Part shown: piece after piece, positions 25,167-58,383 of the stretch
How positions within the stretch are numbered: the stretch's first letter is position 1
How the letters are laid out: each line of letters begins with the position of its first letter
Origin: Mesostigma viride
Taxonomy: Eukaryota > Streptophyta > Mesostigmatophyceae > Mesostigmatales > Mesostigmataceae
Direction of reading: 5' to 3'
Length of the DNA: 64,000 nucleotides
Assembly: GCA_009746045.1 (NCBI GenBank)
Contig: RPFO01000412.1
Span: 284,992-348,991 of the forward strand
Program-made: the position numbers and the translations under genes
Notes under the pieces: model-generated
The model's database searches: none
What the model was told of the DNA's origin: nothing
The model's input: only the letters and a program-made list of their open reading frames with translations

Positions 25167-25614
25167 GGGTGGTCCCACGCGGAATGGGGTAGATTTTTGC
25201 AAGAAAAAAACGCTAATTTCAATCGTCCGAAAACCGGACATTGCGCCGAAATTCTTGCCGAAAATTTGGCAGCCGAGCGAATTTTTCGCCGGACGGACTT
25301 TGCGCCGAAATTTTTTGTCTGCCGTGCTTCGAACTCAACCGACTCCTGCTGTTGCGTGCACTTTGTCCGATGCCTGCAGGCCACGCACGAATTTTGCGAC
25401 CGAAATATGACGACTAGACAAGTTTATCGACGACCTACATCGATCTATTGCCACTTTTGAAGTCCTTGGCTTGCTAGCAGCTTTTGATTATCAATGCCGG
25501 GAACAAAATTGCCGAAATTTTTTATTGAATCAGTACATATATGTGCACATGTCCGTAATTTTATCATTCGCAATTTTGACATTGTCGGAGTATTTGACAA
25601 CTTAGGCATTGCGC
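25167..25614. repeat. Left TIR and subterminal region of the giant element
   Basis: The TIR proper runs to about 25232. It is followed by repeated phrases such as TGCGCCGAAATT (about 25247, 25309) and CCGAAAATTT, the sort of subterminal motif that transposases bind. There is no gene. Confidence 0.75.
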
Positions 25615-26217
25615 CTAGAAAAAGGTGCCCCATCCGTCGATGTCAAAATCGCCGAAGGAGTACACTCCCTGGTACTGGTCTCCCCTGTAGTTGGGAGGCT
25701 CGCCTGTATACATTTTGGTGTTCCACTTGGCCCCGCCGTTCTCCGCAGCAGCCAGGAACTCCTGCTGGGCCTCGGCCCTCAGGCGCATCATTGATACATT
25801 GGGAGAGCCCGGAATTTCCGTGCTCTCCACCACCACTCTCGCCTGATTGTCAGGCACGCATTGGTAAGCAGGGTTCAAATCTGAATCGGGTGGCACCAGA
25901 TCGATCATGCCATTGCCGAACGCAATGACACCTGCACCCCACTGTGCAGAAGGTCCGAGCAACTCTACATCAATTCTGATGTTTGCAGCGTGCTCATTTT
26001 TGTCGACCATCACATAGGTATGCTGAGAACCGAAAATATTGCTCTGCTCCATTTGTGACAGTGTTAAATTTCGGCAAGGTTGGCTGCTTGCAATCGACAG
26101 GAAATTGGTGACCCCGACAGCCAGACGCGCAAGGGTTATAACTGCAGGTAGAACCCAAAATTTGTCGATAAGGAGTAATGGAAGGGCACGACCACCAGTC
26201 ACTAGTATTCGCTTCAC
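25615..26217 (-). CDS. Unknown ORF near the left end of the giant element
   Basis: An open frame of about 200 codons ends at 25615 with FDIDGWGTFF. Residues about 55-200 have even composition (HAANIRIDVELLGPSAQWGA, then VVVESTEIPGSPNVSMMRLR) and look like a real protein. The upstream 50 residues are less convincing. Another frame over 25994-26254 is Cys-rich (TSDWWSCPSITPYRQ and later cysteines), so a splice or frame change near 26050 is possible. A small MITE at 26200-26326 overlaps the presumed start and may have cut it. I recognise no family. Position suggests cargo of the transposon or a captured fragment. Confidence 0.4.
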   Translation of the reverse strand: MKRILVTGGRALPLLLIDKFWVLPAVITLARLAVGVTNFLSIASSQPCRNLTLSQMEQSNIFGSQHTYVMVDKNEHAANIRIDVELLGPSAQWGAGVIAFGNGMIDLVPPDSDLNPAYQCVPDNQARVVVESTEIPGSPNVSMMRLRAEAQQEFLAAAENGGAKWNTKMYTGEPPNYRGDQYQGVYSFGDFDIDGWGTFF

Positions 26218-26326
26218 CGGACACCTTTTTCAGCTTCCGGATAAAATTCAGCAAGAGCAGCGGCGATTAGATACTAAATATTGCGTTATTGGTTCGTACC
26301 GTACCCAGACAAAAATTGTACTAGTG
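26200..26326. mobile_element. Short MITE of the CACTA-ended family, 127 bp
   Basis: The ends are CACTAGTA and TACTAGTG. From the left it reads TTCGCTTCACCGGACACCTTTTTCAGC, matching the subterminal part of the elements at 15082 and 24397. It is a strongly deleted copy inside the giant element. Confidence 0.6.
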
Positions 26327-26591: not shown

Positions 26592-26872
26592 CATGCAGAA
26601 ACAAATGTCGAATAGATTGTGCAAAAAAATATCGAAATCCTTATCATTATTTAAATATACAGCATAAAATTATGTTGCAGTAAAAAATAACTGTTAATTG
26701 AAGGCCGCAAAAAATTATCAACTACCCTTAAACTTGACCACAGAAAGATCTCGAAAAATATATACAATATATGCGGCCACCTTTTTACACCCTACTGAAG
26801 CCCCACTCTAAAGATATAATACGAGCCGAAACTAGGGCGTCGTCTACCCGCAGCGAGACCCCAATTTCTTGT

Positions 26873-29800
26873 TTAAGTCGGTGCCGGCCCCTCCGGGGCT
26901 TCATCCTTGATCACCAGCGTAGTAAGCCACTTGTCGAGCTCCTTGCTCATCCTGATGTCGGCACACATTCCGTCGCTGCGCACGCGTGCTTCTAGCCGGA
27001 GAGCCGGAGCGACGCAGAGATAGCAATTCACAAGCTCGGGCTGGCGTGACGGTGGCCAATCCTCAACGTTGAGCGTGAAATGCAGGGGGTCATGCTTATC
27101 CCGCTTCCAAATCCGAACGGGAAGAATGCCGTTCCCGGCGAGGAACAGCTCCTTCTCCCGTCCGTTCCGGCCCTCGACCCACCTCTCGAAGTTCTCGTCT
27201 AACACGATCGGCCCGGCTTCGCTTACAACCTCAGCCAACCAGAACGGGTGGATGGGATCGTGATCCGTGTCCTTGTCCGATGGAACTGCCACATAGTCGT
27301 GGAGTCTCATCTGCCGGCCCATCGCCTCCCGCTTGTCCTTCAGCTGCTCCCCCCGCGTCACCATGCGAACCGGAGGGTTGGGCTGGCTCGGTGGCAGCAA
27401 ACGGACAGTTTTCATCGAGCTTCCTGCATCATTGAACTCGATGATAAACGACCACTCGCTTAGACATCCCTCAAACCGCCCAGCCAAACAGGGCGGACAG
27501 TAGCAGGAATAGCGCCTAATCATCAAAAGGCCAGGGTCGGACTTGTCCAGTCGCCACCAATGCGCCTTCTTGATGCCAGGCACCTCCTCAACCTCCGCGC
27601 GTCGGCCGGACTCGACGTCCTGTCATCAAATAGTTAGGACAAAAAGAATACCGTTCAAATTAGCAAAATTGACCAAAAACCAATAAAACAGGGTATAGCT
27701 GCAGAGAGACCCCTTAAAAAAAAAATTAACGACAAGACATCAAGTGATCAAAATTCGACACAGGGTATAGCTGCAGAGAGACCCCATTCGAATCATAATA
27801 ACAACGTACGACAAGATATAAGTGATCAAAATTCGACACAGGGTATAGCTGCAGAGAGACCCCATTCGAATCATAATAACAACGTACGACAAGATATCAA
27901 GTGATCGAAATTCGACACAGGGTATAGCTGCAGAGAGACCCCTTCATACCGATAGAACAAGCGAAATTTCATACCTAAAAGAAAAGCAACCCATTGACAG
28001 TATATAGGGTCTCTCTGCAGAGATACCTTTATTGGGTTTGAATTTTTATAGAACAGCGGCAGTTGACGTCTTAAAACCTGAAATAACACAAAATTCCGTA
28101 CCGGGGGTAAAAGGAAGAAGTGGCGAGTGACGTTCTCGGCCCGCGCGCGGGCCGACTCCCTGCTCGATGTCTTGCCGCCCTGCCAGTTCTGGTTCAAGTA
28201 GGCGACTAGCTGGTGGGTCTCAAGTATGTGCTGGTTTTCGGGAATCCTCTGCATTTCCCTCAAGACGCACTTGCACTTCGCTCCTTGACCATCCACCTCC
28301 CCCTTCCCATGCTGCTCCCCCATGTAGTGGAACTCAAAGGCCTGCAGGTCGGGATCCCCCATGAGCAGACCGTTAATCTGGTTAATCACGTACCTGGACT
28401 TAAACTGCACCGCGCAGTTGTCCGAGCACATGTACAGGTTTCGCACCTCTACCCCTACTTCTACCCGCAGGGTTTCCAGAATCTTGCGAAGAGCGTATAC
28501 GAGTGCGCGCTCGCCCCGCTTGATACTGGAATCCCCCAGGAAAAAGAAGACGCGCTTTTCCAGCTCGCCGTTGAGCCGATAACGCACGATCATGGGCATC
28601 AGGATGTGGCTGCGCTTGTGGAAGTACTGCGACTGCAGTTGGACGTAGCTGCTGTTCTCGTAGTTCTCGGCCCAGTCGCCGTGCACGAGCACGTCCCCCT
28701 CTCTCAGATTCTTCTCCCGATCCTTGATTGTATCCGCCTGCGACCAGGCCGTAAAGCAGTGCACGGTGAACTTGTCCCACCTCTTAAGAATCTCGTCCCG
28801 CAGCTCAGCTGGGGTGGACCTCATTTGGACTTGCTCGGGCCGCTTCACCTTCTTCGCCGCCCTGCCATCGGTCTCGCCCTGTTTCGCAAAGGTCCGCAGA
28901 CAGTTTCGATTTGCAATAAAATCGCATTTCGATCAGATAACTGCAACTCACAAAGGGTCTCGCTGCAGCTATAGGTCACAAAAAAAAAAGTCAACAACAT
29001 TTAACGGAGAAATAAAATCGAAACCAACTCACATTCACCCGTCGGGTCACAGTCTGCTCCACCATCTCGAACTTGAACCAATTCAGAATCTCCGTGGAAT
29101 TCTTGTCCCGATCACACTGCACCCAGTTATTATGGATGCCGCATGATTCCTCAGGACAGAACCCCTCCACACACGCCATCTTCAGTATGCGGTGAACCCT
29201 CTCCGTCCTCGGCACCCCATCTTCGTCCTCCACCAGCCTCTCAGAAATGTCGAGGTCTTCCAGGTCCCGTCCCCGCCATTCATCTTCCCCCTCCCCCTCT
29301 TCCTTCCATCCCCCGCCCATTCCGCCCCCTTCACGCAGCCCGTTATCCCTGCCGTCAGTCTCGGCGGACACCGGGCAGTGAAAGTGCTTGATCCAGTCCG
29401 TCGAGTGAATGGCTTTCCACATTCCGCAAGTACCGTCCGGCTCTGTACTTGGAGCATCCCGCACACTCCGCGCCACACTTGCAGTTCTTGCCGTGGTTCG
29501 CATTGCAGTGCTTGGTCCACGCCCCCATGGCCGACTGCATGGTGACGTGCTTCTCACACGCGCACAGGTTCCTCTCCTTCCACTTGCCCTTGATGCAATC
29601 GGGCGCGTATTTGCAGAAGGTCGTGTAGCCCACGTGAATGCCCACGTCCTTATCATACTGGTTACTCCTTTTGTTCCAGTACGCATGCTTTTCGAGAAAG
29701 TGATTGTACATGTCCTCCTTGGAGGTCATGTAATAGCGCGCTCCCTCAACGGCGACGAGCACCCCGCGATTGCCATGACCCTCCCTGCTGTAAGTGCGCT

Positions 29801-30599
29801 TGACATCCTTCATCTGGGAGGAGGCGCGCGACTCATCATCGTGCATCCACGCGTCCACTATCGCGTCAATCACGAATTGCGGCAAAGGGCGCCCCTTGCG
29901 AGCCTGCGCGTGTCTGAGGTAGTCCAACTTCTGCTGCCTTCGTATCGCGCGAATTCCGCGAATCTTCTTGGCGTCCATCCCCGTCAGGTTCTCCAACTCC
30001 GCGGCCGAAAACTCCTTCTCCAAGTCGTCACCACAGTAAAGCGTGGACATCAGCACCATCCTGACGTCTCTGTCTGCGTCGCTTTTGGTCAGACCATCAA
30101 AAAAGCCGTTAATCCGAGCCACCCAGAACCTGTTCAGTTCTGCCATCCGCTCCTGATTGTAAAGCTTTTTCGCCTCCTCATGATACTTCCCGTGACCTAG
30201 TTCAGCGGCCCTAGAGTTAAAGCCAGCAATCATCTGGTCGAAAGCCGGCCCCCGCCCCTCGGGTTTTGTCATCGCCTGAGCCGCTTCAAACGCCTGGTCA
30301 GCGAAATATTCCCCAATAACCCTCTTTGATTTCGAGTATTCTCCCGGCCGCTTGACTTCCTTGGCTTCAGGCTGCGCTGGATTCTGGTTCTCATCTCCGA
30401 AAACCCTTTTTGCGCCAGTTGACTGCTTCGTCCCGGTGTTCAACTTAATTGCACTGAATCCTGGACGACCGGACGCAAGGGCGAAAACTCCCACCCGTTC
30501 GCGTGCTGCATGCCATGACGACCGGCACAACGAAATCCATGCAAATCGAGTATCGTTGGGAAAAGCGACAATTACAGACAAAGTTCGAAAGTGTATCAT
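26873..30599 (-). CDS. Candidate DDE/RNase H-fold transposase, spliced gene
   Basis: Four coding parts are joined by GT-AG introns. 30599-29033 has MDAKKIRGIRAIRRQQKLDY, then HVGYTTFCKYAPDCIKGKW and a Cys/His cluster (CKCGAECAGC), with a frame change near 29440, then FCPEESCGIHNNW. 28878-28102 has VLVHGDWAENY, LYMCSDNCAVQFKSRYVINQ and YMGEQHGKGEVDGQGAKCKC. 27619-26873 has AHWWRLDKSDPGLLMIRRYSC and a C-x2-C pair. From memory, the set DFAENY / SDG..QYK / HGKG..DG, with a C-rich tail, recurs in uncharacterised transposon-like proteins of invertebrates; its acidic residues would suit a DDD/E catalytic core. As the only enzyme-like gene native to the element it is the best candidate for moving it. 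The true start is uncertain; 30599 is only the open-frame limit. Confidence 0.65.
27620..28101 (-). repeat. Intron with five palindrome repeats
   Basis: A GT-AG intron between the catalytic and C-terminal parts of the transposase gene. A unit of about 75 bp (AAAATTCGACACAGGGTATAG, then CTGCAGAGAGACCCC and AATAACAACGTACGACAAGA) is repeated in tandem from 27750 to 27941, with further palindrome copies at 27691 and 28007. Almost the whole intron is made of this repeat. Confidence 0.75.
28879..29032 (-). other. Intron of the transposase gene
   Basis: The donor GTGAGTTGG follows the coding end TVTRRVN. The acceptor AAACAG comes before GETDGRAAKKVKRPEQVQ. It holds one palindrome copy (28955-28977). 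The exact donor could instead be GTGAATGTG a few bases upstream. Confidence 0.6.
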
Positions 30600-30613: not shown

Positions 30614-30873
30614 GGGGTCTAGCTGCAGCTAGACCCTTAGAGGGGCTTTTTCCGTTAGACGAAAAGATTACCTGATGTGGTGAACTTAGCATACCCCGAC
30701 CAAGATTGGGGTCTCGCTGCAGCTAGACCCTTCATTGCGGCGTGCGATTGTTAAATCACAGACTTCTGATTCATTAATTTAATAGCAACCATAAAGAGGG
30801 TCTAGCTGCAGCGAGACCCTTGAATTTAAGCTATTGCTTGTGGTTATAAATGGTCTAGCTGCAGAGAGACCCC
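30614..30873. promoter_or_regulatory. Palindrome cluster upstream of the transposase gene
   Basis: Four copies of the 22-bp palindrome lie at 30614-30636, 30708-30730, 30798-30819 and 30851-30873, directly upstream of the minus-strand gene. The first is perfect (GGGTCTAGCTG and its inverse). A similar cluster precedes the plus-strand gene at 47353. Likely a regulatory or transposase-binding region; this is inference from position. Confidence 0.55.
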
Positions 30874-31228
30874 AATAAGGACGAAAAGATTTCAGGTTTT
30901 CCTCACCTTCGCGGCTCATTCTCTTATTAGTTCTCCCAGAACACTCAGATACCTGCATGGCGAGAATAACAAAAATAACACAGTAGCATTGATAAAATTG
31001 TTTATCAGAAAATATATATTCATTGAGAATGATAGATTACGGAGGTGAGATAGGCATGCAACATAAGGAAAAACCCGAGAACTGGGAGAATAACCCTGAA
31101 GAAATTAATAGTAATCTGACACAGACATCCAAGGATCACGCCAGCGGCACAAGGTACAACTAACTATACATCACAAAACTACACGCAGCAACAGCGCTGC
31201 CGGCCCACCATGCAGGCCTGGAAGGAAT
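30874..31228. other. Non-coding stretch including the LINE 3' end
   Basis: No gene. The 3' untranslated region of the minus-strand LINE lies in the right part; the border with giant-element DNA could not be set, because I found neither a tail nor a target duplication. 30990-31130 is AT-rich. Confidence 0.4.
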
Positions 31229-34200
31229 CTAGACCGCATGGGTCGCGACAAAGTCGGCCCGGGTGCGGCGGAATAACACATCAGCCACGGTGCGAGTGAG
31301 GGCGAGTGACAGACGCTGCCGCCAATACGAGGACCACGTGCGGGCCGACCACGGGGCGGTCTGACCCTCGAGGTCGAGGCGGTCTTCACGGCGCTGGCAG
31401 CACTCGTGGAAAAACTCCGCTGTCTTGGGGCCCATGGCCCCGAACTCCTCAAGGACAAAGGGGATGACCCGGTGGGGCCCCACATTGCCGTAGGAGGCAA
31501 ACTTGTCGCGCTCAGCCACAGCGGCAGCAGCGCCGGCATCCACAGCCGCCCGGAGGATGTGGCGACCGGAAAGCGGCCGAGCCACGGAGACATCGATGAG
31601 CAGGTGGCAACCCTGCCCGTCGTAGTCAAGCACGGTAATGTCGGGGCGGTGGTTGGGTGAGTAGAGGGCGGCCCCATCCGCGTCCTCGCACTTAATGGTG
31701 GAGTGGGGAAAGACCGACCGAACCATGGCACACACCACCCGGAGGAGAGCGGTATGGAGATAGAGGAACCAGTTCTGGTTCTGCTGGCCACCCATGCACG
31801 CGATGTAGTGCGTCCCAGTAGTATCCAGAGCAAGCCCGCAGCTGCCGCAGGACGCACCCGCCGTGATGAGAGGTTGCGGGGCAAAGAGCTGGTGGCGGAG
31901 AGCGATGGCGTAAAGGGCCGGAACCAGTGTGAACAAAGGGCTCATGGGGAGGGCGCGCAGGAATGCGGACCCCACGCTCCCCTCAAGGGAAACGGAGTGA
32001 AGCCAAGCCTTCCCCTGATCGTTCAAGCTCGCATGCAGACCCATCCAGTCGGCACAGTGTAGTATACCCGCGTAGGTCTTTTGTTGTTTTTCATGAACGC
32101 AGGCAGGGAAGACACTAGGACTGACGACAGTGGACACGCCGGGCGTGCCCCGGGGCAGGCGACGGTGGACGGCCTGAGCGGGGCGGACGAGGTCGCAAGC
32201 CTGCTGGATCCCGAGGTAAGAATCCTGCACAGCCTGCACAAAGGGGAAGGGGGATGGGGTGACCAAGTCGGGAATGGCGCTGACGGCGCTGGGGACCAAC
32301 CGGCGGATCTCCGCCCAGGCCTGAGCAACAGAGCCAAGGAAGGCGGCGGGGGCGAGGCGGGCGGCGCGGGTGAGCCCACACCCGCCCATGCGGCAGGGGA
32401 GGGTGGCCAAGCGCATGGAGTGAGCTGGCAGGCTAGGGCCGGGGAGGAGCACCTGCAAGGCGGCCTGAATGCGCTCGTCATGGCCTTCCGCGGCAAGCCG
32501 CACCAAGTGGGGGGGAGCGCCACGGAGCCAGTGAACCACCCGCGGGTGGGCGCAAAACCACAGGAGGAGCCCTTTGGTCTGGGGGTCCTTGAGGCGCGCC
32601 CAAGTCTCAAGGACATGGGTGCGCTGTTCCACGGTGGCCCGGAGCTCCTCTTCGACGTAGTCAGGGTCACCCACAGGGACGCCCAGGCACGAGAAACCGC
32701 GCGCCCGCGCCAATGCCCCCGGGATAGCCGCGGGGAAGCCAGAGCAGTCCCCCTGGGGCGAAAAGACTGCACACTTGGGGAGGGTGAGCCGAAGGTTGAT
32801 GGCCGCCATGGCCACTTCAAGGGCAGCCAGGGCGGCAACCACAGCGTCGGCCGGGCCAAGGGCATGGATATCGTCCATGTAGGCGAGGAGCACGACATCC
32901 GGGTGCGCAGCGTGGACACCTTGGAGAGCCTTGTGCAGCGGGGCAGACAGGTAAAAGGGGCCGAGGGGGTCACCTTGCTGGGTTCCCGTGCGGGAAGCGA
33001 TGTCGGCGAACGTCCCATCCTCCATGAGGAAGGAGAGTTGAGTGGGTTCGCCGTAGCAGGCTGCTGTCCACGCAAGAAGGTCAGGGAACGCCTCGCCGAC
33101 GGCCTCAAAGATGCTAGCCTTGGTGACAGCATTGAACGCATTGTGGCAATCCACCTTCAGCGCCACATGGGTCGGATGCGTCTCGAGGTAGGCCTGAACT
33201 GTGTGCACGATGATGTCGCTGCCCCCTTTGGTGGCGACGCCAAGCTGGGCCGCGACGGACTCCTCAGTATCACTCCGGTTGGGGCAGAAGTAGGCGCGAA
33301 ACTCGGGGGCCTTTTGGCGACAAATGACCTTACTCACCAGCTTGCGTAGGACCTCGCCGCAAGCAATGGGACGAACGCGGCCAGCAGGCGGGGGGACGTC
33401 GTCTTTCAGGAGGGCAATGAGGCGTGCCCCAGCCAGCCAAGGGCGCGCCGCGGGGGCCAGGGACCCCGCGGCCAAGTCGGCGGCAGCCTCAAAGAGTGCG
33501 GTCGCCCCGCCATGGCCCGCCATCACGGAGAGGTGCTCGTAGCGCCAGCCTGAGGGGCCGGTGGAGGAGGCGTTCGGCAGATCCTTCAGCACAGCCGTGA
33601 AGATGTCCAGGTCCAGGACAATAGGCGGGGGCGGGGGGGTGGCCGGGGCGGGCACCGCAAAGGCCGGTTCGTCGGGGTGAAGGTCGCGCAAAGCCTGCAG
33701 GGTCGGGGGAGTGGAGGGAGCCAACGCGGTCAGTTCAAGCTTTTGCATGGCCCGGCTCAATTCACCTACCTTCACCAACCGCATGACGTCAGCTTCCACC
33801 CGGGCAAAGGAGGCGGCCCCCGACACCCGGGTGGAGGCCGGAGGCTGCAGCGCCCACAGCCCTTCCCAATCCCCGAGGAGGAACCGCCGGCAGCGAGCGA
33901 TGACCGCACCCTGTACGCCACGCACGCCCCGCTCCAACGGCGCTAAGAGGAGCCGGGGGGTGACGAGAAACAGCTTGTGGCCGAGTTCGTCGAGAGGGTG
34001 ACTATGCATCCGGGCCAGGGAAAGCAGGGCGCAGCGCGTAAACAAGCTCCGGGCGCGGTGAGGGACGTCCGGGAGCGTCATGCAAGGGTTGCGCGCACAG
34101 GCGGCAAAAGGGAGCGTGGCCAGGAATGCCCAGCCTGCCGAGAGGTCCCCCGGATCGCTCGTACCCTGCGATGCCGGTGGAGGGGCAGGGGCCGACCGAG

Positions 34201-35149: not shown

Positions 35150-35163
35150 GGCCGCACCCGCGC

Positions 35164-36522
35164 TCAGCTCAAGAACACGCCCCCCCCCGCATCGTACAGA
35201 ACCAGGTCGCCGGCGTGCACGGTGACAGGAGCCCCGAAGTCAACGCGCAGGCGGGCGGCTTGCGCTGGGGTGACCGCCGTAGTCAAGCGCCCGTGGGCCT
35301 GCGCAACAAGGCCGGCCGAGCCGGGCCCGGCAGAGGCAAGAAACGTGTGCAGCTGAGGGCGATCGAGCAAGGCGTGGTCGGTGGCCCCCCCAGCGAGATA
35401 TGTCGCACGGGCGGCCTGCTGGGCCTGCACGGCAAGCCCTGTAGCAAAGAGCACCACCGCCTGCGCCACTTGAGCGTCCAGATTCAGGAGCCATTCTTGG
35501 CGCACCGCGGGCAGGTGCCAAGGCAGGCGGCCGCCGGCATGGTAGTCCTCGAGGACAAACCCCCAAAGCGTGGAGGCAAGGACAGGGGGGGAGGCTGCCT
35601 GCAGCATGTGCCGGACACGAACCACAAGGGCACTAAATTCAGGGGGCCGTGGGAGCGTAGGAAACGCCGCGTGCAAGCCGACAGCGTCCAACAGCAAGGG
35701 GCAATACAGCCAAGAGAACGTGGCGTGCCGGAGCGCGCTGACGCCCGCAATGTTGGTGGGGGGCCAAACGGAGAAGTCGTGGGACCCAAGCGCGGCCGAC
35801 CAGGGGCCCACCACAGGAGTCGCCGCAGGGTGTCCCACAGCCTCAGGGAGGAGAGCCGCCAGGGACCCCTCAAGCACAGGAGGACGCAGGTCAGTGGCCA
35901 CCGCCGTGCTGGCCGGAGGTGGATCCCCAGAGCTAGGCGGGGCAGGGCCAGGGGACCCCGCGGAGGGGCCGGACGTGACGGCGCGGGGAGAGCGGGAGCA
36001 CGGTGTGGAACCCTCCACGAGGGCCGCAAGGCCCAGGAGAGGGTCCAGCGAGGGGCTGCGGGAGGGGGCGCGGGCCGAATGGGATCCCGGGGTCGACACG
36101 GCCGCGCGTCGGGAGCCTAGGGACGGCCGAGGCGGGGCCACGCAATGAGGGCACGCCCAAGGACCCGGGGGAGGCAGCCGGAAGAGGGGCGGGACCAAGC
36201 AGCGCGTGTGCCAGCCGCATTGGCACGAATCACACACAAGGAGACGGGGGGCATCCTCACCACTGTGGCAGACCTCGCACACAAGCGAGAGTGGCACAGG
36301 GGCGCCACGACCGCCGTCGTCCAGGTCGCCCATCTCCTGCAGGTGCGCCGCGATGCGTAAGGACCGACGCGGCGCAGGGGCGCCACTAGGCAGCGCATCC
36401 CGCGCCCGGGAGGTGCGGCGTCGTGAAGGAGGCATGGGGGAGATGCGTAAAACAACGGAACCGGAAGCGCGGGGGGGAGAGCGAGATGCGGACGCGGGGG
36501 GTTTGGGGGGCGTGCCCCCCAA
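35164..36522 (-). CDS. LINE ORF1 with PHD finger
   Basis: 452 residues. An Arg/Pro/Ser-rich N-terminus is followed at about 85-135 by a PHD-type zinc finger: CEVCHSGEDAPRLLVCDSCQ, then CGWHTRC and WACPHC, the Cys4-His-Cys3 pattern that usually reads histone H3 tails. After a Pro-rich linker comes an unrecognised domain (about 240-440: DFSVWPPTNIAGVSALRHAT, then LDAQVAQAVVLFATGLAVQA). A chromatin reader in a LINE ORF1 could direct the particle to certain chromatin. Before its stop the coding strand has a run of nine G (35180-35188). ORF2 is already open in another frame there. Confidence 0.85.
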   Translation of the reverse strand: MGGTPPKPPASASRSPPRASGSVVLRISPMPPSRRRTSRARDALPSGAPAPRRSLRIAAHLQEMGDLDDGGRGAPVPLSLVCEVCHSGEDAPRLLVCDSCQCGWHTRCLVPPLFRLPPPGPWACPHCVAPPRPSLGSRRAAVSTPGSHSARAPSRSPSLDPLLGLAALVEGSTPCSRSPRAVTSGPSAGSPGPAPPSSGDPPPASTAVATDLRPPVLEGSLAALLPEAVGHPAATPVVGPWSAALGSHDFSVWPPTNIAGVSALRHATFSWLYCPLLLDAVGLHAAFPTLPRPPEFSALVVRVRHMLQAASPPVLASTLWGFVLEDYHAGGRLPWHLPAVRQEWLLNLDAQVAQAVVLFATGLAVQAQQAARATYLAGGATDHALLDRPQLHTFLASAGPGSAGLVAQAHGRLTTAVTPAQAARLRVDFGAPVTVHAGDLVLYDAGGGVFLS

Positions 36523-47816: not shown

Positions 47817-47893
47817 TCCCCATCGTTTTTCTGCCGGCGATTCAGATTCTGAATGACATTTGTGAAACTTGCTTTTTTGATATTGTTCTGCAG

Positions 47894-50800
47894 ATGTCGT
47901 CCTCCTATTCCGATTCTGTCAAGGCCACTCCCGTTTCACCCAAGATGACGTCGAACACCTCGCCGGACCGAACGGCAACGGAGGCGTTTCCTCCGTTGCA
48001 GTTCGGTCCCGTAAATGCTCTGCGAGGTCCCCCCCACCGAGTCCCCCTCGCCCTCCAAGTCCAACTTGCCCCCCAGCGAGTTGGACAGAATTATACCCCC
48101 CAACTCTCTCGCTGCTGCGTCTCGCGCTCCGTCCCGCTCTCCGCCCCGTAAGTCTCCATCGCCGCCCCCCAAGTCGGCCGGAGCTACTGCGTCCCGCTCG
48201 CCGCCCCGCAAGTCCCCCAAGTCCCCCGCAACTGCGACCCGTTCGCCGAACCGCAAGTCCCCCTCTCCGCCCAAAGTTCCCCCCGCTACCGCGTCCCGCT
48301 CTCCTTCTCGCAAGTCCCCCTCGCCGTCAACCAAGAACCCCGCAACTGCGTCCCGCTCGCCGTCCCGCTCTCCTTCCCCCAAGTCCCGCTCGCCGCCACC
48401 CAAGTCCCCCGCTTCTGCGTCCCGCTCGCCGTCCCCCAAGCATTCCAGTTCTAAGCGTAAGCCTGCGGCCGAGTGGGTAGAGGAAGACGACCGCACCAAA
48501 GAGCTCAGGAAGCTGAGGAAGTCTATCAGTGAGCTTGTTGAGGAGGACGAGCGCGATCAGACTAACGGGAGGCCTGAAGACCCGGAATCGCCGGTTCGGG
48601 AGTCGCGTCAGAAGCGGTTGTCCGATTTGTTAGCAATGGCCGCAAGCTTTGCTGACGAATACGCGGCTCTCGACAAGAAGGACAAGGAGAAGGAGAAGGC
48701 GGAGAGGGAGGCCATCGAGAAGGCGGAGAGGGAGAGGGTGGAGAGGGAGGAGAAGGAGAGGCTGGAGAAGGCGGAGAGGGAGGAGGAGGAGAGGGAGTAC
48801 AAGGAGAAAAAGGCTGCCCAGGAGAAGGAGCACAGGATCCTGGTGGCGAAGCAGAAGGAGGAGGCGAAGAAGAAGACGGAGGCGGCAGCGAAGGAATTCT
48901 TGCGGAGGAGGCCGCTCTTTTTTTGCAGATGCGACAGGAGAGGATGAAGGCGGAAGAGGCCGCGAGGAAGATGGAGGAGGAGGCTGCGAGGAAGGAGGAG
49001 GAGGCTGCGAAGGCAGTTGAGGGGGAGAAGGACGAGAACGGAGAACCCCTTCTTCACGAAGGATTTTCAGTCGATTATCAGGTATGTTTATTAATGTGAG
49101 ACGTACATTTTTCAGATGGCTTGAACGGCGTGTGTGTATCGTAGAAAGGGTGGGATTTTATGTCATACATTGATCGTAAGGGTCTAGCTGCGGAGAGACG
49201 TTGACCTAGGAGTTAAGGTTGTTGACGACGACGACGATGTGTGGCCTTTTTTTTACTCTTGTTGTCTGCAGCCCTCCACGGTGGCCATTCTGAAACAGTA
49301 CCTGGCTCAGACTGAGTCTGAGGCTGGGGTGAGTCGTAAAGCCGAAAAGGGCTTGAGAGGCTTGATCCGCTTTCTTTCGGCCGAGATAGCGTTTGCAGAG
49401 AAGTCCGGTGTCGTCGTGGACCGTCCGGAGTCGGCACACATAATTTGGAAGAACGACCGCCTGGGCCGTCTTGCATTGTTCGAAGCCACACAGCGAGCCA
49501 TTCATGGGAAGAGGGTCGTTGGTGACGACATTATGAGGTTTTGAAGATCGCGCAGTCGTGCATCCTTAATCTGAAGGAGGATGTCGGACGTTACTTTCCC
49601 CGTCGTGCTTTAATATGGTCGACGCTCTTTGATGAGGTTGAAAAGTTCGAGGTCCACATTGGCTTCACATGCATCGAGGCTTCCTATATGGAAACCTTGA
49701 AAACCACTGCGTTGCATCAGCTCTTTAAACTCATGACTGGAGATATGAGAGCGGATTCGAGGGCTTCACTGTCGGAAGATGAAGTGTTTGATATTGTCAG
49801 GCAAGGATTTGTTGACACGTCCAACAGTGACTTATCGTAATTGTGCCGGGAAGAATGAATGACGTAGGAGGATTGGAGGAGCGCGCACATGAAGTGATCG
49901 CGCATTTGGACATGGCAAGAGACCACTTACTGCAATCTTTTGTTAAGTGGCGGACTGACTTTCTTGTCAGCCCGGACGCCAGCCTTTCGCGGGAAGCGGT
50001 CGCTTTCTTTTTGGATTGGGCTGGACAGGTGATCCAAAGTTTCCGGCACCGGGAGGACTTCCATGTTATTCAGACATATAAGCCATACCGGGAAGTCGTC
50101 CAGGAATGGTTGGATCAAATCTCGTTGGTTGATTGTCTCCAGAGTATCCGAACCAAGACAGACACGGAGTGGTCTGATTTAGAGGCGGGAGGCCATTGGC
50201 AGTCCCTCGAGTTGTTCTTCGAGGCGGAATTGAGGCGGCAACTGGAAAAGGAGAGAGCCCATCAAGTGCCGATATGGCCTTTGGGGAAGATTTTGAGGAG
50301 GTGGAAGTTCTACGTTTCGGTACGTTAACTTGCCGATATCGTTTATCGATTTGGGTTGTTTCCATTCCCTGAATAGGGCTCTATATGCTGACCAACCTTC
50401 ATGGTTTGTCCTGTCATATCATGCAGGGGGGCTCCATGCCAGGGGACGTATCGGAGGATTTACCTAATTTGTCAGACTTGGTTGATAAGGTGGGTGCTTG
50501 TCCGTCGAGTTTCCACGAGCATCTTACATGGGGTCTAGCTGCAGGTAGACCCTCACCCTTTTATTGAGACTGACATGTTCGGCTAATTTCAACGGTGCCC
50601 CCAACCAATCTGTTGTCTTTTTTCAGGGGGCGGCTGCGGCGATGGCTGTTGACAGTGCTGGTATTTGGTCTGGACTCGAGATGGAAATGGTAAGCATTAA
50701 ACGATATCCGGATGTCTGCATTTCGCCTGAAGTTTTAGTGAGCGCATTATGCGAAATATACAAATGTCGACTAATTTTGATTTCCAATGAGCTGTCGTAT

Positions 50801-53800
50801 TCGGTGTTGACAGGCGGGGGGTTTGGCCTCAGCAGGCGCTGCCGGAGAGGAAGAAAACGCTGGAGGAGATGAGGATGAGGGAGACGCTGAGGGAGAAGTG
50901 GCTGTGCAGGTACGTTCATCCGCCGCGAGTTCGTGTGATTTTTTTCGTGCTGAGGGGTATCTCCGCAGAGAGACGATGGTGCAACAATCGAACTGAGGTC
51001 AAGTCCCTTCTTGTTCGTTTTTTTTTTCATGCAGGCGGGGGCTGTCGCTGGGGGTACTGCGGGGGGGAAGGCGGCGAAGCCCCATTGACAGTATGAAAGG
51101 GAAAAGCTGGATTCCCGCAAGAAGGTTGCGAAGGATCATATTATTGCTGTTGGCCTGATCATGCTTAAGTCTCCGCCCGATGGCGTCGATTCGGAGGGAC
51201 CTGCGGGGTCCGAGTTTCGCAAGTACCTGACACGACTTGAGGCGGAAGTCGATGCCGATTTCGATACGGAGGTGTTGGGTGCGCTACCTTTAAGAGTGAA
51301 TTGGCATATGAATTCGCAAATCTGGTGAAGTCGAAAGCCACCAAGAATTTCAAGTGGCAGCCTAAGGAGTACTCAGAGGCAAAGGTTGACAAGATCGAGA
51401 AATTCATGAAGGCTGATTTTCGTCGTCGGGCCGCTGAGGGAAAAAGGGCGCTGAATGCGGTGGCAAAGGCCAACAGTAAGAAGAACGCGGAGGCGAAGGC
51501 GGCGGAGAAGGAGGCGAAGAAGGCGGAGAAGGAGAAGGCTAAGGAGGCCAAGAAGCAGCAGAAAACTGGACAGGTACGATTGTTGTGAAAATTTAGACCT
51601 CTCGCTGCGGGTAGACGCTGACTGGCTGCGGGACTTGGTGTTTAGTGTCAGTAAGGTATTATTCCAACAGAACTTTGTTCGTCCCTGAACAGGATGTCGT
51701 GGTCGGCCTAAAGATTACTGACTTGAGCAAATCCTGCGGTCCTTTTCGATTTTTTACTTCAGGATGACGGGGGGGACGAAGACGCCACGGTGGAGAAGAA
51801 GTTACCTGGTCATGACGCCGTGTTCGCGCTGGTGAAGGATATGCTCAAGTACTGCTCGAGTAGGCGGATGGCGGACGTCGATGACCTGCCAAACTGGCCC
51901 GAGTTCTCCCCCTTTCTTGAGCTGCTCCGGTCACTCAACAAGCTTTTTAAGGAGGGGGTGCTCACGAGCAGTGGGAACCCGGACACCGACCCTATCATTG
52001 AAAGCTGGAAGCCTTCGAAAAAGGTCGACTCGAACAAGGAGGTCAGGGACCAGAACATCCGGAAGGCCAATACTCTCAGGGAAACGCGTTGGATTCGGCC
52101 GGCCGATTTTAAGCAGACCGGATGTTTCAGTATGCGGATCCAGACGGTCAACGCGCTTATTTTGCCAGAGGCTTTGAGGCAGCGGCGTTTAAACCTTGAA
52201 ACCATTAAGGAGAACGGCCGCATTCTCCTCAATGCGCGGGACAACGCCTTGCACTTCAAGGTTGTTGTCCCGGTCTGGCAGTTCCCTTTCCAGGCGCTTG
52301 CCGAATCTCAACCTGACCTGTTCGACAAGCAAATCTTGTGCATGCCGGATTTCGTCAAGTGGCTGAAGCATCACCACGGCGCCAAGATTGACGCGGAGGA
52401 TGTGGGGTCCAGGTACTTCCGGCCCCTTTCGGATACTGAAGTCGACGTGTGGCTTAACACGGAGTCCACCACCTCTTTCCTCGCGAGAGGACTTGAGTGG
52501 CGTACCTACGCCAGGGTGGACGAGGTGGAAGCAGTTTTGCCTCAGGAGATCGAGGGCAGTCGGCAAGTTTTCAACCTGCTGTGCAATACTGCGATGAAGT
52601 CCTACGATCCGAAATTTTTTGAGGAACGGGTACCGGTACCGTATCTGGTTCTCCGGTACGCGGTGGTGGATGGGAACCACTACTTTAAGGGGTTAAAGTC
52701 GTTTCTCAGGGGGCCGGATGGCGGGTGGGGAGAGGTTCGGGCAATGATGTGCGAGGGTGGGGCGGAGTCCAATTTCGCAAATACTCCTAAGGAGGCGGAG
52801 CACGCATTCCAGGACCTGTTGCGGAAATTCCGTGGTGGTTACATGGGTACGAACGTCATTCTTCTCAAGGGTGGCGACCTGCTCCCGTCGTGGAGTGAGC
52901 TGCGAAATCTACCTAAGGCAAAAGAAGATGTAAGCTATCTATTTTGGCAGGGTCTAGCTGCGGGTAGACCCTCGGAATTTTCGTGGTTGTTTTTTGTGTG
53001 CGCTTCAAGTTTTTTGCGAGGGTCTCGCTGCAGCTAGACCCTCTCCTTTTTTTTGTTGGAATTTTCGTTGCGTATTGTCGGCCGTTTCTTTTTCGAATTT
53101 TGTTAGGGTCTATCCGCAGCTATACCCCTCGCCTTTTATGACTGAGTTTTGTCGTTGCTCGCTCGATGTTAATTGATGTCGCAGGCGGTGCTGACCGGCA
53201 AGCTGGAGAAGCTGTTCGACATCGCCAAGGGGGCGAATTCGGAGGACTTAGCCGTGGCGGATCGTACGCTGGGCCAGGCGTTGCTTGACGTGTGGAACTA
53301 CAACAAGCTATATCTACACGGCAAAGTCACGCGTGGGAAGGGCCACTATATTGCGGATGGCCACTATACCAATCTGCTCACGTACATCCTCCCGGCTATG
53401 CGGCAAGCGGGGGGAGGGAAGGGAATGTGGAGCCGGCAGCGGTGGATGTACACGAGGAGGAAGCAGAAGGAAAGAAAAAGCCGGCCCACAGCATTGCTTC
53501 AGTGCATTCCGCTTACAGTCGCACGCTGGCCAACACGTTTCTCCGTCTGACACAGGAGCAGACTGATGATCCTGCCTCAACGAAACCCGCGCCTGAGGAG
53601 GTGATGATGCAAAGGTGCAAATTCGCGAATGCAGAGGGGGAGAAGAAAGGCCAGAAGGTCTCTTGGACCGCTTTCAGGAACTTGGCCAGCCTTCCTATGA
53701 TGGACGCCGTGATCGATTGCATCATGAGCTGCCAGGTTGGACCGGAAAAGCTCACCAAGTTGGTGGAGTTCGCCAAGGATGTGCTGGAGTGCCTGCGGCT

Positions 53801-56800
53801 GACCATTTGCGCCAGATTCAAGGAGGATGAGACGCTGGAAGCGCAATGCAAGGACGCAAAGGGCAAGGAGTTTGTGGCGTCTCATATTTTCGAACTCGTC
53901 TTCAATCTCCATCCTCTCGCTCGGCCGGTCGGCAGGAAGGAGATTGTGGCCAGATACCGGGAATTTTGGGATGTGGCCGTCATCATAACGAGGAACATCG
54001 CCTACCTTCTTAACCCCTAAATGGTCTTGCTGCCGATTTTCCGCCAAAAAGTGACTTACAGCCGATTTGTCGGCACCTACTCGGGGGACCAGTTTGCGAG
54101 AATACTATTGGGAATTAGGAAACGTTTAGCTGAGAAGAATGAAAGTTTATAAGTTTCTCCAGAACATGATACTAGGGTTTGCTATATTTTGACCAAGTTT
54201 AACAGGTGTTCCAGACCGTCAAAGTACAAGGGGTCAGGGTACTTTTTCACGTACAACGTGCATTCCGGAAAACGACGACCTGGCCATGGCGGCTTGCGCC
54301 CACGCATGGCATTTACGTTTGCGTTCGAATTTTCTGGCCAAACTTAGGATATTGATTTTATACGTCCTAAAGATCATACAGGCCAATTTTTGGTTCGCGG
54401 GAATGCCATTTGATAGGTGTCGGCAGCGTTCTTGCTGGAAAAAACTGCGATCAGGCCGGACGATAGAAACGTTGACAGCAATACCTTTCCGGCGTATTTT
54501 AAAGGATATATCGGTTTCTTTGTACTTTTTATGATACATATTAGTCGTAAACGTGCAAGGGTGGCCAGAAATCGCCGAATCCAACGACCATGCTGCACAA
54601 CTTTGGTGTGCCGAAATGCGCCATTTTGCTGCCACCGCCTGGGCCAAGGTAACGCCATCCATGCCTGGTAAAGCTTAAGCATCGTTTTCCTATCGATGTT
54701 TGACGTTTATATATACGTTCTAGCTTGTGTAGCACATTCTTTTTGCATTATTCATGCTCTTTCTTGACCCTGGCCTGGCCCCTTTCTAAAACACCCTTCT
54801 TAGATGCTTCCCTCAGTCAGTTGACCTGCCACAGGGTGATGGTGATAAGTTTTAGAGGCTGTATGGGTTTGAATACCTCCATATATGTTTGTTATACAAT
54901 TCCCACACACATATTGCATGAGTGTGAGGCAGTTGGCTGGTCTCTGTGGCATCATCAAGCATGTAACCGGTGAGTAGAAGCTTCCCATTGTCAGCATGTG
55001 CCACCAGGTGTGCTGGCCATCACCTGGAAAGCTATAGCAGCTTAGGCCTAGTTTATCCTTGCTAGGGCAGGCTGAAATAGGCTTAAAATCACTAGTTTGT
55101 TGGTGGCTGCCTCCTAGAATGCATGCCTTGCGTAGGGTATCCGTACCACGTTACCTACGTGCATGGACAAGGTGGCACCTGCACATAGGTGCCATGTAAG
55201 GGCAGTGTGATGATGCAGTTATGTTTCCCCATCATTGTGGAAGGGAAATGTATTGTTTGGCATGGTTGGGGGCCATATTAGTAGGTATTAGTAGGTAGTA
55301 TGCCCACTCCTACCCCCTTGGTTGCTTTTTACCAACGGTATCCCTATGGGCTGTACTGGGTGTAACTGCTGGTATACCCACCCAAATGATGACCCCAATG
55401 GCTCAAACTGTTCAGCAACTAATTGTTTATCATCCCTGAAGTGGTAGGTGCCTAGCTCTTACAACATAATTCAAAATGCACATTCTACCAAAAATGAAAA
55501 CGCTCGTCTTGACCCCCCTGACTTTGACGGCAGTTATACATGGCCTACGATGAATATATGTGAGGTTGTGATATATCATGGCTTAGGGCAACTCATGGAC
55601 ATGCTTGCCCCCCAAGGACAGCCAATCGATATTGCTAGGTTGTACAGGGGCTGGTTTACAAAATAGGTGAGTTACTGCCGATTTATCGGCAGCATTTCCG
55701 CCCATTTAGGGGTTAAAGCCAAAAAACACGCCGCACATCTGAGGATTCCGAGAAAGGATCTCAGTAGTGGCAAGATCGACTTTCAGGAGATTCTGCTAAA
55801 AGAGAGCGAGGACAAGACGGTGGGTTTGGCACTTTTGGCTCCGGAAGCGTTCAGGAAGTACGCTCCAAAAGTTGGATTACTCGAAGGGGGGGTGAAGGAG
55901 GCGGCGATGAAGGGGCCGGTGAAGGGGCTGGAGAAGGGGAAGGGGAAGGGGAAGGGGAAGGAGACGGAGGCGAAGAAGGAGGAGGAGGCGAAGGAGGAGG
56001 AGGAGTGGGACGTGAAGTATATGAGTGGCAGAGTGTGGACTGGGGCCGTCGCCGGGTCTGGTTTTGCTGTCAGGCCCTAGACGGTGATGATGATGACAAG
56101 TCGCTCGTCAAGCAGGTGGCAGGCGAGGTTGCCTCAGCTTCAGCCCGCCCCTTTCCCTTGGGCAGGTCCCTTCCGTGCCTGAGCCTGCTGAACTTGGCGA
56201 ACATTTGGGGTGATAAGTGGAGTAACTTTCAGAGAGGGTGGTGGGCGTTCGGTCCTTGCCCGACAGCTTCGGACATTCCCCAACCGGGCGGGATGTACGA
56301 TCATGTGCTGAAGGCTAATTGCGCCCACGACTTTTTCTCCAGGTTCGAACCGATGGTGATCGTGTTTGGTACCAAGACGGAGATTAAGGGGTTTCAAGAG
56401 ATAGTGGAAAGGATCGGGAAAGGGAGTGAATTGTGGGAGCGGCTTGAACGGGGGGAAGGTGATGAGGGGCCTAGGCTCGGAAGGGCGAAGAAGCGAAAAG
56501 CTTCCCACGAAGCTGGGGGATTGTCCGCCATGGTGGAGAGGGATGACCAACAGTTGTTGGAGGGAGGGGATGGAGGGGATGGAGGTCCGGCAGGAGGGTC
56601 TAACCGCGGAGAGACCCCCGTCGAGGTCAGAACGCAGCAGGCCGAACAGATGACGGGGCCTGAAGGTGATTCGGATCCGCCTGCGGCGAAGAAGCCCGCT
56701 TCTCAAGTGACTCGACGGGCAGTCGTGTCACTTGTTGAGGATGATGGAGGTGGGCCTTCCAAGCCTGCCGCGTCGCAGCCCGTTTTTCAGGTTCCGAAGA

Positions 56801-58089
56801 AGCAGCTTCGGGTTCCCCCGCCGACTCTGCCCACCCCGGCGCCTCTGCCCATTTCTCAGGTACCGAAGAGTACGCTTCGGGTTCCCCCGCGGACTCAGCC
56901 CATTTCTCAGGTACCGAAGAAGCAGCTTCGTAAGCAACTTGTGGCAGTGGCTGATTCGGACGACGATGCTGAGGAGGAGGAGGAGGAGGAGGAGGAGGAC
57001 GACGATGCTGAGGAGGAGGAGGGGGAGGAGGAGGAGGAGGAGGAGGAGGAGGAGGAGCAGCACGTTGCTACCAAGAAATCCGCCCTGGGTGGGAAGGCTG
57101 CGGAGCACGTTGCTTCCAAGAAATCGGCCAAGGTGGGGAAGGCTGCCAAGCCTGCCCTGCCTCAGAAACGGCGTCGAAAAGCAGTTGTGCTTTCAGATTC
57201 GGACGATGAGGAGGAGAAGGAGGAGGAGGATGGCGGCGGAGAGGAGGAGGACGGGGGAAAGGAGCGCGTTGCTTCCAAGAAGTTACCCAAGACCGCGAAG
57301 ACTGCCAAGGTTGCCGAGCCCGCCAAACCCGCCCCGGCGCCTGCCCCCCACCCCCAGACGGGGTCTACCTGCGAGCAGAGGTCGAAGGAAAAGGCCAAAA
57401 AGGGTAAGAAAAAATCTGCGAGTGAATTCTGGTATGTAGAGTGTTTTGATTTTTTACGGTTGGCAGTCCGATTTCTACTAACTCGATTTTAGTCATGCGT
57501 TGATGGCATGATCGGTTTGCTCGCAGGTAAGGAGGATGTGGAGCAGTTACTTCGCTTGGCTAATGTGGCGGTGGGCTTCGGACCAGCGGCTGTACATGCT
57601 GACACTTCCGGACGGGAGGAGCCTAAGGGGGCGGAAGACAGTTAGGCGGGCGATGAGGATGATGAGAAGCCCACGCTGGAAATGAGACTTATGGACGGGG
57701 AAATGGGGTTCGGAGCACCAGAGGCCTTTTGGTGTGATGGGTGGACTTCAGCCATTATGCAAGCAGGGAACAAGGATACGGCTACGCCAATGTATGCCAA
57801 GCTAGAAGACGTCATGCTTTATGGGCAGGTGTCTGGATACGACACCAAGTGGAGGGACGTCGCATTTAAGTTTTTCGCTGAGGGGGAGAAGGGAGGGAAG
57901 TTGAAGAACAAGTTGTGGTGGATGCCGCTGGACTACGCGATGAAGGTGGTAAAGCTGACGGATGGCAAGAGCTGGAAGGATGTGGAAGTCTGGGCGCCTG
58001 CAAAGGAGATCGATAGCAAGAGGAGGAAGTCGAAAACGGAACAGCAGATCGCGGAAGCGAAATTACGGAAGAGGCCCTCGAAAGCTTGA
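47894..58089 (+). pseudogene. Very large spliced gene of unknown function (element cargo)
   Basis: About ten exons with GT-AG introns (for example 49082-49271, 50320-50426, 50490-50626, 50690-50813, 50910-51034, 51574-51762, 52931-53184, 57432-57526). The product would exceed 2000 residues. N-terminus: repeated SRSP(S/P)RKSPSP, then a Glu/Lys/Arg coiled coil (48640-49060). Middle: alpha-helical, unrecognised (PGHDAVFALVKDMLKYCSSR; FRPLSDTEVDVWLNTESTTS). Late part: three repeats of (S/F)QVPK..LRVPP, long Asp/Glu runs and Lys-rich blocks (56930-57420), suggesting a nuclear, possibly chromatin-binding protein. C-terminus: FWCDGWTSAIMQAGNKDTAT. Disruptions: frame changes near 48030, 48900, 49535, 49838, 51280 and 53410, stops at about 51087 and 57642, and the TTAA element. 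Many could be sequence errors, since the protein sense persists through all exons. Confidence 0.6.
54014..55712. mobile_element. piggyBac-type non-autonomous element, family 1 (1699 bp)
   Basis: TTAA at 54010-54013 and 55713-55716 flanks CCCCTAAATGG and CCATTTAGGGG. Subterminal GCTGCCGAT blocks occur on both sides. Excising it joins ...RNIAYLL to KAKKHAAHLRIP in frame in the host gene, so it landed in a coding exon. No transposase frame. It is inverted relative to its sister at 60787-62954, and supplies the empty TA site (54225-54226) for the MITE there. Confidence 0.9.
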
Positions 58090-58383
58090 GGGAAAGTTAG
58101 CACTTGGACATGCGCTGGCAATGCTCGTCCTATGGTTAATACAAAGGTTAGGATGATGTCGAGTCTCTCCACGTAAAATTTACATGAATTACTAACTTTC
58201 AAGCCTCTCGATGTGGAATGTACGCTCAAATTGACATGAATTAAGCATTATGACACCAAATTAGCTCGAAAATACGCGATCGGACGCCAAATTCGCGCGA
58301 AAAAAAGATATCGGACGATTGAAACTAGCGTTTTTTTCTTGCAAAATGCGCCAAAAATGACCCCATTCCGCGTGGGACCACCC
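58090..58383. repeat. Right subterminal region and TIR of the giant element
   Basis: The TIR runs from about 58305 to 58383. Before it lies AT-rich DNA with partial repeats (AATTTACATGAATTA and AAATTGACATGAATTA; CCTCTCGATGTGGAATGTACG and GTCTCTCCACGT). The gene ends at 58089, so the right end is only about 290 bp beyond the coding sequence. Confidence 0.8.

What the first reader, a model, noticed from the sequence alone, without database searches (positions are those of the whole stretch)
25167..58383. A 33-kb DNA transposon with TIRs, a 4-bp target duplication and an empty site in the same window
The termini match as inverted repeats (24 identical outer bases, GGGTGGTCCCACGCGGAATG onward, then a second matching block). 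ATAC stands on both sides, and gypsy copy 1 carries the uninterrupted sequence at 9889-9892. This proves one precise insertion event of 33.2 kb. Inside are a DDE-like transposase candidate, a huge unknown gene and a private repeat family. The TIR and 4-bp duplication match no superfamily I can name with confidence, and cargo-carrying DNA transposons of this size are rarely described.
Basis: partly seen in the sequence, partly recalled or inferred. Interest (0 to 1): 0.93.

Follow-up and report, generated by a model that had tools for sequence, protein, structure and literature searches.

The report
Giant nested DNA transposon in Mesostigma
A very large "jumping gene" of the cut-and-paste type has landed inside another mobile element in a green alga related to land plants; giant elements like it are known in other algae, but this one belongs to a poorly known family and carries an unknown second gene and its own set of short mirror-image DNA sites.

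Summary
24 bp are identical as inverted ends (25167-25190 / 58360-58383). ATAC stands on both sides, and gypsy copy 1 carries the uncut site at 9889-9892: with the flanks joined, 182 of 200 positions match without a gap. On the minus strand lies an intron-containing gene for a DDE-like transposase, about 99% identical to an annotated Mesostigma viride protein (cluster of 4), which also names the host. The 33.2 kb are not one unit: a LINE with an 11-bp target duplication, a second LINE and a 1.7-kb TTAA transposon sit in a backbone of about 20 kb. The backbone carries the transposase, an outward-facing orphan gene (47.9-58.1 kb, frame-broken here) and 24 copies of a 22-bp dyad; no dyad lies in the flanks or nested elements. 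The 4-bp duplication speaks against KDZ and CACTA and fits Sola, but no Sola protein could be compared. Giant DNA transposons with nested elements and an accessory gene on the opposite strand are published for Ectocarpus, and a 31.7-kb one for Chlamydomonas. So: real, a new family of a known kind. Other copies could not be searched because the genome tool did not complete.

The parts
25163..25166 (.). left target site duplication ATAC
58384..58387 (.). right target site duplication ATAC
9889..9892 (.). empty target site in gypsy copy 1 (ATAC on the minus strand), inside the chromodomain-coding end of pol
   Evidence: 182 of 200 identical, no gap; domain position
25167..25190 (+). left terminal inverted repeat, 24 identical bases (similarity goes on to base 64)
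58360..58383 (-). right terminal inverted repeat, 24 identical bases (similarity goes on to base 73)
30907..30952 (-). transposase first exon (approximate), with the MSRE start
   Evidence: weak tblastn stretch of P0001 (30952-30851, 58.8%) and the ATG at 30919-30907
29442..30506 (-). transposase second exon, contains a Cys/His cluster; change of frame at its end (29441/29442)
   Evidence: 99.2% to P0001 over 355 aa
29039..29440 (-). second exon continued after the frame change
   Evidence: 98.5% to P0001 over 137 aa
28102..28878 (-). transposase exon with the DDE-like core (HGDWAENY, SDNCAVQFKS, HGKGEVDG)
   Evidence: 99.6% to P0001, 66.7% to P0002, 44.0% to P0003
26873..27619 (-). transposase last exon, C-terminal Cys cluster (YSCYCPPC)
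   Evidence: 59.2% to P0002 over 250 aa; P0001 is read in another frame here
25618..26052 (-). small ORF (145 aa from Met), possible third gene, no Pfam match
   Evidence: codon-position GC 0.57/0.41/0.64
47892..58088 (+). gene 2: large multi-exon orphan gene (borders read by eye), about six frame changes, interrupted by the TTAA element
   Evidence: no relative found; no Pfam family above cut-off
26840..28976 (.). 7 copies of the 22-bp dyad (26840, 27691, 27763, 27841, 27920, 28007, 28955), 3' flank and introns of the transposase gene
30615..30872 (.). 4 copies of the 22-bp dyad (30615, 30709, 30798, 30851) in transposase intron 1
36965..36986 (.). 1 copy of the 22-bp dyad in the central region
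47354..47816 (.). 6 copies of the 22-bp dyad just upstream of gene 2 (4 in a 109-bp tandem array)
49180..56617 (.). 6 copies of the 22-bp dyad (49180, 50531, 52950, 53020, 53106 in inferred introns of gene 2; 56596, a weak one, in an open frame)
38161..40215 (.). central tandem arrays (30-bp units), left part
46773..47341 (.). central tandem array, right part (split from the left part by LINE2)
40216..46772 (+). nested LINE2 (RT; endonuclease match below cut-off), TSD ATCACACCCCC at 40205-40215 and 46773-46783
31232..36579 (-). nested LINE1 (coding part): PHD in ORF1, RING + RT in ORF2; no clear TSD found
54014..55712 (.). nested TTAA transposon (TIR CCCCTAAATGG, TSD TTAA at 54010-54013 and 55713-55716) inside what reads as an exon of gene 2

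Best explanation
This is one copy of a giant, intron-containing, cut-and-paste DNA transposon of the streptophyte alga Mesostigma viride. Shown: a precise insertion with 24-bp inverted ends and a 4-bp duplication into the 3' part of a gypsy pol gene; a resident gene for a protein with three conserved acidic motifs; an outward-facing second large reading-frame series on the opposite strand; a 22-bp dyad family confined to the element within this window; nested insertions, two of them (LINE2, TTAA element) with their own target duplications. Inferred: the protein is a DDE transposase that binds the inverted ends (24 bp plus shared subterminal blocks), cuts the element out and joins it to a target with a 4-bp stagger. 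The backbone was about 20 kb; the two LINEs and the TTAA element enlarged it before or after this landing. Gene 2 is an accessory gene whose product helps or regulates the element; the dyads, clustered just upstream of gene 2 and just inside the transposase gene, are the likeliest regulatory or self-recognition sites. This copy probably no longer makes both proteins intact and would need intact copies elsewhere to move again. Superfamily: most likely Sola or a new group, not proven.
For: TIR, TSD and empty site. Transposase relatives: P0001 (99%, a cluster of 4 sequences), P0002 (62%) and P0003 (41%), the three named Mesvir1; P0004 and P0005 from environmental data. Motifs D(W/Y/F)AENY, SD(N/G)C..QFKS and HGKGE.DG are present in 4 of the 4 relatives tested, P0001-P0004; P0005 is a 481-aa piece without this region and was not tested. 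63 columns are invariant in the four-sequence alignment. Codon-position GC: the third position is highest in 4 of 4 transposase exons and in 10 of 12 gene-2 pieces measured; five non-coding stretches lack this. Dyads: 24 of 24 within the element, 0 in 30.8 kb of flanks, 0 in nested elements, 1 hit in total over 20 shuffles of the element. Nested TSDs. 4-bp TSDs of Sola2 (PMC3627910, passages) and of Sola1 with a 32-bp TIR (PMC6875170 Table 2).
Against: No second copy could be shown at DNA level: the genome search did not complete. The transposase matches no Pfam family above cut-off; the best catalytic match, DUF7869, has E 0.12 and is seen in 1 of 4 relatives, beside an equally weak TniQ match (E 0.11). 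Gene-2 frames were chosen by eye before the GC test, 2 of 12 pieces do not show the third-position peak, and its low-complexity pieces were mostly not measured. Gene 2 is broken in several places, so its product and its part in mobility are guesses. The dyad consensus was taken from the window itself, and the flanks are mostly gypsy sequence, a poor control for the rest of the genome.
Confidence: 0.8

Rival explanations
1. This copy is a passive passenger: a giant non-autonomous element whose ends are recognised by a transposase made by intact relatives elsewhere (P0001/P0002 type). The resident genes were already broken when it landed.
For: Frame change at 29441/29442 in the transposase, while the 99% identical P0001 reads through that point. 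Gene 2 has several frame changes and a TTAA insertion. The same situation is described for giant Ectocarpus elements (PMC12477816).
Against: Order of events unknown; the breaks may postdate the landing. Some could be assembly errors, or the gene predictor may have bridged the frame in P0001.
Confidence: 0.4
2. The transposase is not Sola but a new superfamily of DDE transposases with 4-bp duplications, found so far in Mesostigma and a few environmental sequences.
For: Only 5 relatives in two searches of a 5.8-billion-protein collection (6766 and 8000 candidates scored, the second capped). No Pfam match above cut-off, no NCBIfam match for the 2 relatives scanned, no PDB relative. If the E of HGKGE is the third catalytic residue, the C(2)C motif that marks EnSpm/Mirage/Chapaev is missing between it and the second D (reading of the alignment against the definition in PMC12730594).
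Against: Repbase proteins were not available, so a match to Sola, Academ or Kolobok proteins was never tested. The word-based search misses remote relatives: one search did not even recover P0003 and P0004.
Confidence: 0.35
3. The element is a viral genome or virus remnant that acquired transposon ends, as in Teratorn.
For: Large, carries an orphan gene and many dyad sites.
Against: Apart from the reverse transcriptases, RING and PHD of the nested LINEs, no Pfam match above cut-off in the ORFs and pieces of the element scanned, and none of a capsid or packaging protein (not every ORF was scanned). No relative of the transposase or of the gene-2 piece 51760-52932 confirmed in viral contigs. No exact dyad match there.
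Confidence: 0.04
4. Assembly artefact: two unrelated element ends joined by mis-assembly.
For: A repeat-rich genome, 66% repeats by PMC6947507.
Against: Matched 24-bp ends, exact 4-bp duplication, exact empty site, and a dyad family spread from 26.8 to 56.6 kb between the ends.
Confidence: 0.03

Closest known systems
Giant Sola-1 transposon Sola1-1_Ec32 of Ectocarpus (PMC12477816; section 5 read in both parts, other passages)
   Same: 21.5 kb, transposase gene, large accessory gene on the opposite strand. The paper says that most giant families of this genome carry nested unrelated elements and that the transposase gene is frequently broken.
   Different: Its accessory protein has ParB-like and DNA methyltransferase domains; gene 2 here has no Pfam match above cut-off. 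Transposases not compared. The passages I read mention no dyad sites.
Sola2 elements of Dictyostelium fasciculatum and Polysphondylium pallidum (PMC3627910, passages)
   Same: 4-bp AT-rich target duplications, short TIRs (12-21 bp), an 888-aa transposase in one family, unrelated extra genes (Fanzor).
   Different: No TnpB/Fanzor-type Pfam match in the pieces scanned here; the target ATAC has a C; sequence homology untested.
KDZ giant transposons (31.7-kb KDZ moving in Chlamydomonas, as cited in PMC12477816; TSD from PMC12730594, passages)
   Same: Size, green-alga host, complex transposase, accessory genes.
   Different: Zisupton of KDZ makes 8-bp duplications, here 4 bp; no KDZ sequence was compared.
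Teratorn (PMC6431247, passages)
   Same: Giant element with short TIRs and a transposase.
   Different: piggyBac-like with herpesvirus genes; none recognised here.

Membership tests
DDE cut-and-paste DNA transposon (class II, TIR order) | terminal inverted repeats | tested here: met
   24 identical bases
DDE cut-and-paste DNA transposon (class II, TIR order) | target site duplication with empty site | tested here: met
   ATAC, 182 of 200 gapless
DDE cut-and-paste DNA transposon (class II, TIR order) | transposase with three conserved acidic residues in an RNase H fold | tested here: inconclusive
DDE cut-and-paste DNA transposon (class II, TIR order) | several copies in the genome with the same ends | not tested
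   The genome search failed in all 15 tries; indirect only: P0001 stands for a cluster of 4 sequences
Sola1/Sola2 | 4-bp target duplication | tested here: met
   one insertion; definition
Sola1/Sola2 | homology to Sola transposases | not testable with these tools
   no Repbase proteins held; supplements closed
KDZ | 8-bp target duplication | tested here: not met
   4 bp in this insertion; 8 bp stated for Zisupton in PMC12730594
EnSpm/CACTA | CACT(A/G) ends and 3-bp TSD (recalled) | tested here: not met
   ends GGGTGG, 4-bp TSD
[quoted passage not shown]
   no CxxC between SDNC and HGKGE in the alignment, but which E is catalytic is inferred; definition PMC12730594
piggyBac/Kolobok/Sola3 | TTAA target (recalled) | tested here: not met
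   target ATAC
Ginger | integrase-like transposase (Pfam rve) | tested here: not met
   no rve match at E up to 1 in P0001-P0004

The most novel reading that the evidence does not exclude
The element marks its own DNA: a protein it encodes (gene 2, or the Cys-rich transposase) binds the 22-bp dyad GGGTCT-MKC-TGCA-GMK-AGACCC as a dimer at about two dozen places across the backbone, clustered at the starts of both genes. It controls their expression or the chromatin state of the element, much as ParB spreads from parS or as the ParB-methyltransferase of Sola1-1_Ec32 is thought to act. Half-sites vary independently of each other (170 matches against 172.9 +/- 3.3 in shuffles; no covariation above shuffles), as expected of protein half-sites rather than of an RNA hairpin under selection. 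This would be a new kind of self-recognition module in a eukaryotic DNA transposon, with an orphan protein and a DDE transposase lineage not yet named.
Probability: 0.15. Interest if true: 0.75.

Novelty: new member of a known kind. Interest (0 to 1): 0.45.

Why it matters
How far eukaryotic cut-and-paste transposases can move tens of kilobases with extra genes is still an open matter; the cases I saw in print are from brown and red algae, Chlamydomonas, fungi and fish. A clean case with ends, duplication and empty site in the earliest-diverging streptophyte lineage widens that range. Its two dozen dyad sites and orphan second gene give a directly testable model for how a giant element recognises and regulates itself.

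Tried and rejected
Other copies: a 19-base part of the TIR, exact, in viral contigs and genome contigs, 0. Transposase alignment A1 in viral contigs (72 pattern stretches, none confirmed) and genome contigs (219, none confirmed). Gene-2 piece 51760-52932 in viral contigs (1 pattern stretch, not confirmed). Dyad pattern in viral contigs, 0. A 1075-aa query of gene-2 pieces against the protein collection: none at E 0.001 among the 8000 candidates scored (capped); only proteins of 0.55-1.75 times that length are candidates, so a full-length relative of about 2000 aa could be missed. NCBIfam: nothing for P0002, P0004, the gene-2 piece or LINE1 ORF2. PDB: nothing meaningful for A1 (best E 0.82) or the gene-2 piece (best E 0.0087, a viral RNA polymerase over 64 residues, and 0.035, a transcriptional regulator; not believed). 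Below-cut-off Pfam matches of gene-2 pieces, not believed: Bromo_TP 0.02, RVT_thumb 0.069, PuR_N 0.22, Nrap_D6 0.24, RecQ_Zn_bind 0.012, SIR4_SID 0.096. tRNA and Rfam scans empty; a tRNA-like T-arm near 26500, seen by eye, is therefore not supported. RNA-hairpin reading of the dyads disfavoured for lack of covariation above shuffles, though 79.1% of cells pair against 6.9-47.1% when the partner is slid, so the dyad symmetry itself is real. LINE1 target duplication: best candidates are 9 bp, near chance by a rough estimate of mine. Literature: DUF7869 in no held paper; Mesostigma with 'DNA transposon' and 'terminal inverted repeat': 1 paper, on arthropod MULEs, listing only. These searches cover only the held open-licence library. 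Yuan & Wessler 2011 is not held.
Full report
Check of the observation. The two ends of 25167-58383 share 24 identical outer bases as inverted repeats, and the likeness goes on, with one main gap, to base 64 on the left and 73 on the right. The outer 23-mer has exactly these two matches in the window at up to three mismatches; 100 shuffles give none. ATAC flanks the element on both sides. Joining 100 bp left and right with one ATAC gives a sequence that aligns to the same place of gypsy copy 1 (9789-9988, minus strand) without a gap, 182 of 200 identical. The longer flanks align at 94.1% over 288 bp and 91.8% over 2405 bp. This is a precise insertion near the 3' end of a gypsy pol gene; in copy 1 the site falls in the part that encodes the chromodomain (residues 1346-1398 of the frame 5777-9985).

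What lies inside. On the minus strand, exons at 30952-30907 (approximate), 30506-29442, 29440-29039, 28878-28102 and 27619-26873 encode a protein whose annotated relatives are named 'jgi/Mesvir1', that is Mesostigma viride: P0001, 99% identical and standing for a cluster of 4 sequences, P0002 (62%) and P0003 (41%). This names the host, a unicellular streptophyte alga whose genome is 66% repeats (PMC6947507, section 2.3 read). P0004 and P0005 are distant relatives from environmental data. Three acidic motifs are present in 4 of the 4 relatives tested (P0001-P0004): D(W/Y/F)AENY, SD(N/G)C..QFKS and HGKGE.DG. Pfam gives only DUF7869 at E 0.12, in 1 of 4 relatives, over the last two motifs, and TniQ at E 0.11 elsewhere in the same protein. 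This copy has a change of frame at 29441/29442; P0001 reads through there, so intact relatives seem to exist, unless the gene predictor bridged it.

Gene 2 runs the other way, from about 47892 to 58088, with borders read by eye. Of 12 pieces measured, 10 have their highest GC at the third codon position, as have 4 of 4 transposase exons (for instance 0.58/0.38/0.70 in 51760-52933 against 0.59/0.36/0.80 in the catalytic exon); one piece ties and one (57496-57642) does not; five non-coding stretches do not show the pattern. No relative was found (with the limits given under Tried and rejected) and no Pfam family reaches its cut-off. It has about six frame changes outside evident introns (my reading) and is interrupted, in what reads as an exon, by a TTAA transposon. 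Both genes point outward to the TIRs; tandem arrays fill the middle.

Nested elements. LINE2, 40216-46772, splits the central array with an 11-bp duplication ATCACACCCCC. A transposon with ends CCCCTAAATGG and TTAA duplications lies at 54014-55712, and a longer sister lies at 60787-62954 in gypsy copy 2. LINE1, coding 31232-36579, has PHD, RING and RT domains and no clear duplication. Taking off 6568, 1703 and about 5350 bp leaves about 19.6 kb. Whether the guests rode along or came later is unknown; in Ectocarpus such guests are generally fixed among copies (PMC12477816).

The repeat family. At up to 5 mismatches, 24 copies of GGGTCTCGCTGCAGCGAGACCC lie in the window (17 at up to 3, 25 at up to 6). 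All are within the element, 0 in the nested elements and 0 in the 30.8 kb outside; 20 shuffles of the element gave one hit in all. By my exon borders, 23 of 24 fall in introns or outside genes and one weak copy in an open frame. Six stand just upstream of gene 2 and four in transposase intron 1. Flanks are unrelated except in two short tandem arrays. The two halves do not covary above shuffles, which speaks for a protein dyad site rather than a selected RNA hairpin. The consensus was taken from the window itself and the flanks are mostly gypsy sequence, so absence from the rest of the genome is not shown.

Comparison with the known. The 4-bp duplication of this one insertion speaks against KDZ (8 bp for Zisupton) and, with the ends, against CACTA; TTAA families are excluded by the target. 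The C(2)C motif of the EnSpm-Mirage-Chapaev lineage is not seen where it should be if the E of HGKGE is catalytic. A 4-bp duplication with short TIRs is stated for Sola2 (PMC3627910) and Sola1 (PMC6875170), so Sola is the leading candidate, but no Sola protein could be compared. As a kind, the object is known: giant DNA transposons of KDZ, EnSpm and Sola-1 in Ectocarpus, with maximum lengths from 15.2 to 30.3 kb, nested guests, broken transposases and accessory genes, one of them on the opposite strand in a 21.5-kb Sola1 element; and a 31.7-kb KDZ seen to move in Chlamydomonas (PMC12477816).

Verdict. The dyad system and the orphan gene are the parts that deserve work.

Noticed in passing
60787-62954 and 54014-55712: Two copies of a TTAA-targeting transposon (TIR CCCCTAAATGG, TSD TTAA), about 95% identical over 1.5 kb: one inside gypsy copy 2 (empty site in copy 1 near 7493), one inside gene 2 of the giant element.
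   Followed up: yes
31232-36579 (minus): LINE with a PHD finger in ORF1 and a RING-H2 finger N-terminal to the RT in ORF2. By eye the C-terminus has a Cys/His knuckle followed by a PD..D-like motif, perhaps a restriction-like endonuclease; not tested.
   Followed up: partly
24398-24878: A 0.48-kb insertion in gypsy copy 2, absent from copy 1 at 10176/10177, with CACTACAATACG inverted ends: perhaps a small non-autonomous CACTA element.
   Followed up: partly
18286-19139 and 45001-45847: A fragment 81% identical to the RT region of nested LINE2 lies in inverted orientation in the left part of the window.
   Followed up: no
38161-40215, 46773-47341: Long tandem arrays of 30-bp units in the centre of the giant element; the array 38161-40007 matches the one at 46773-47345 in inverted orientation at about 75%.
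   Followed up: no
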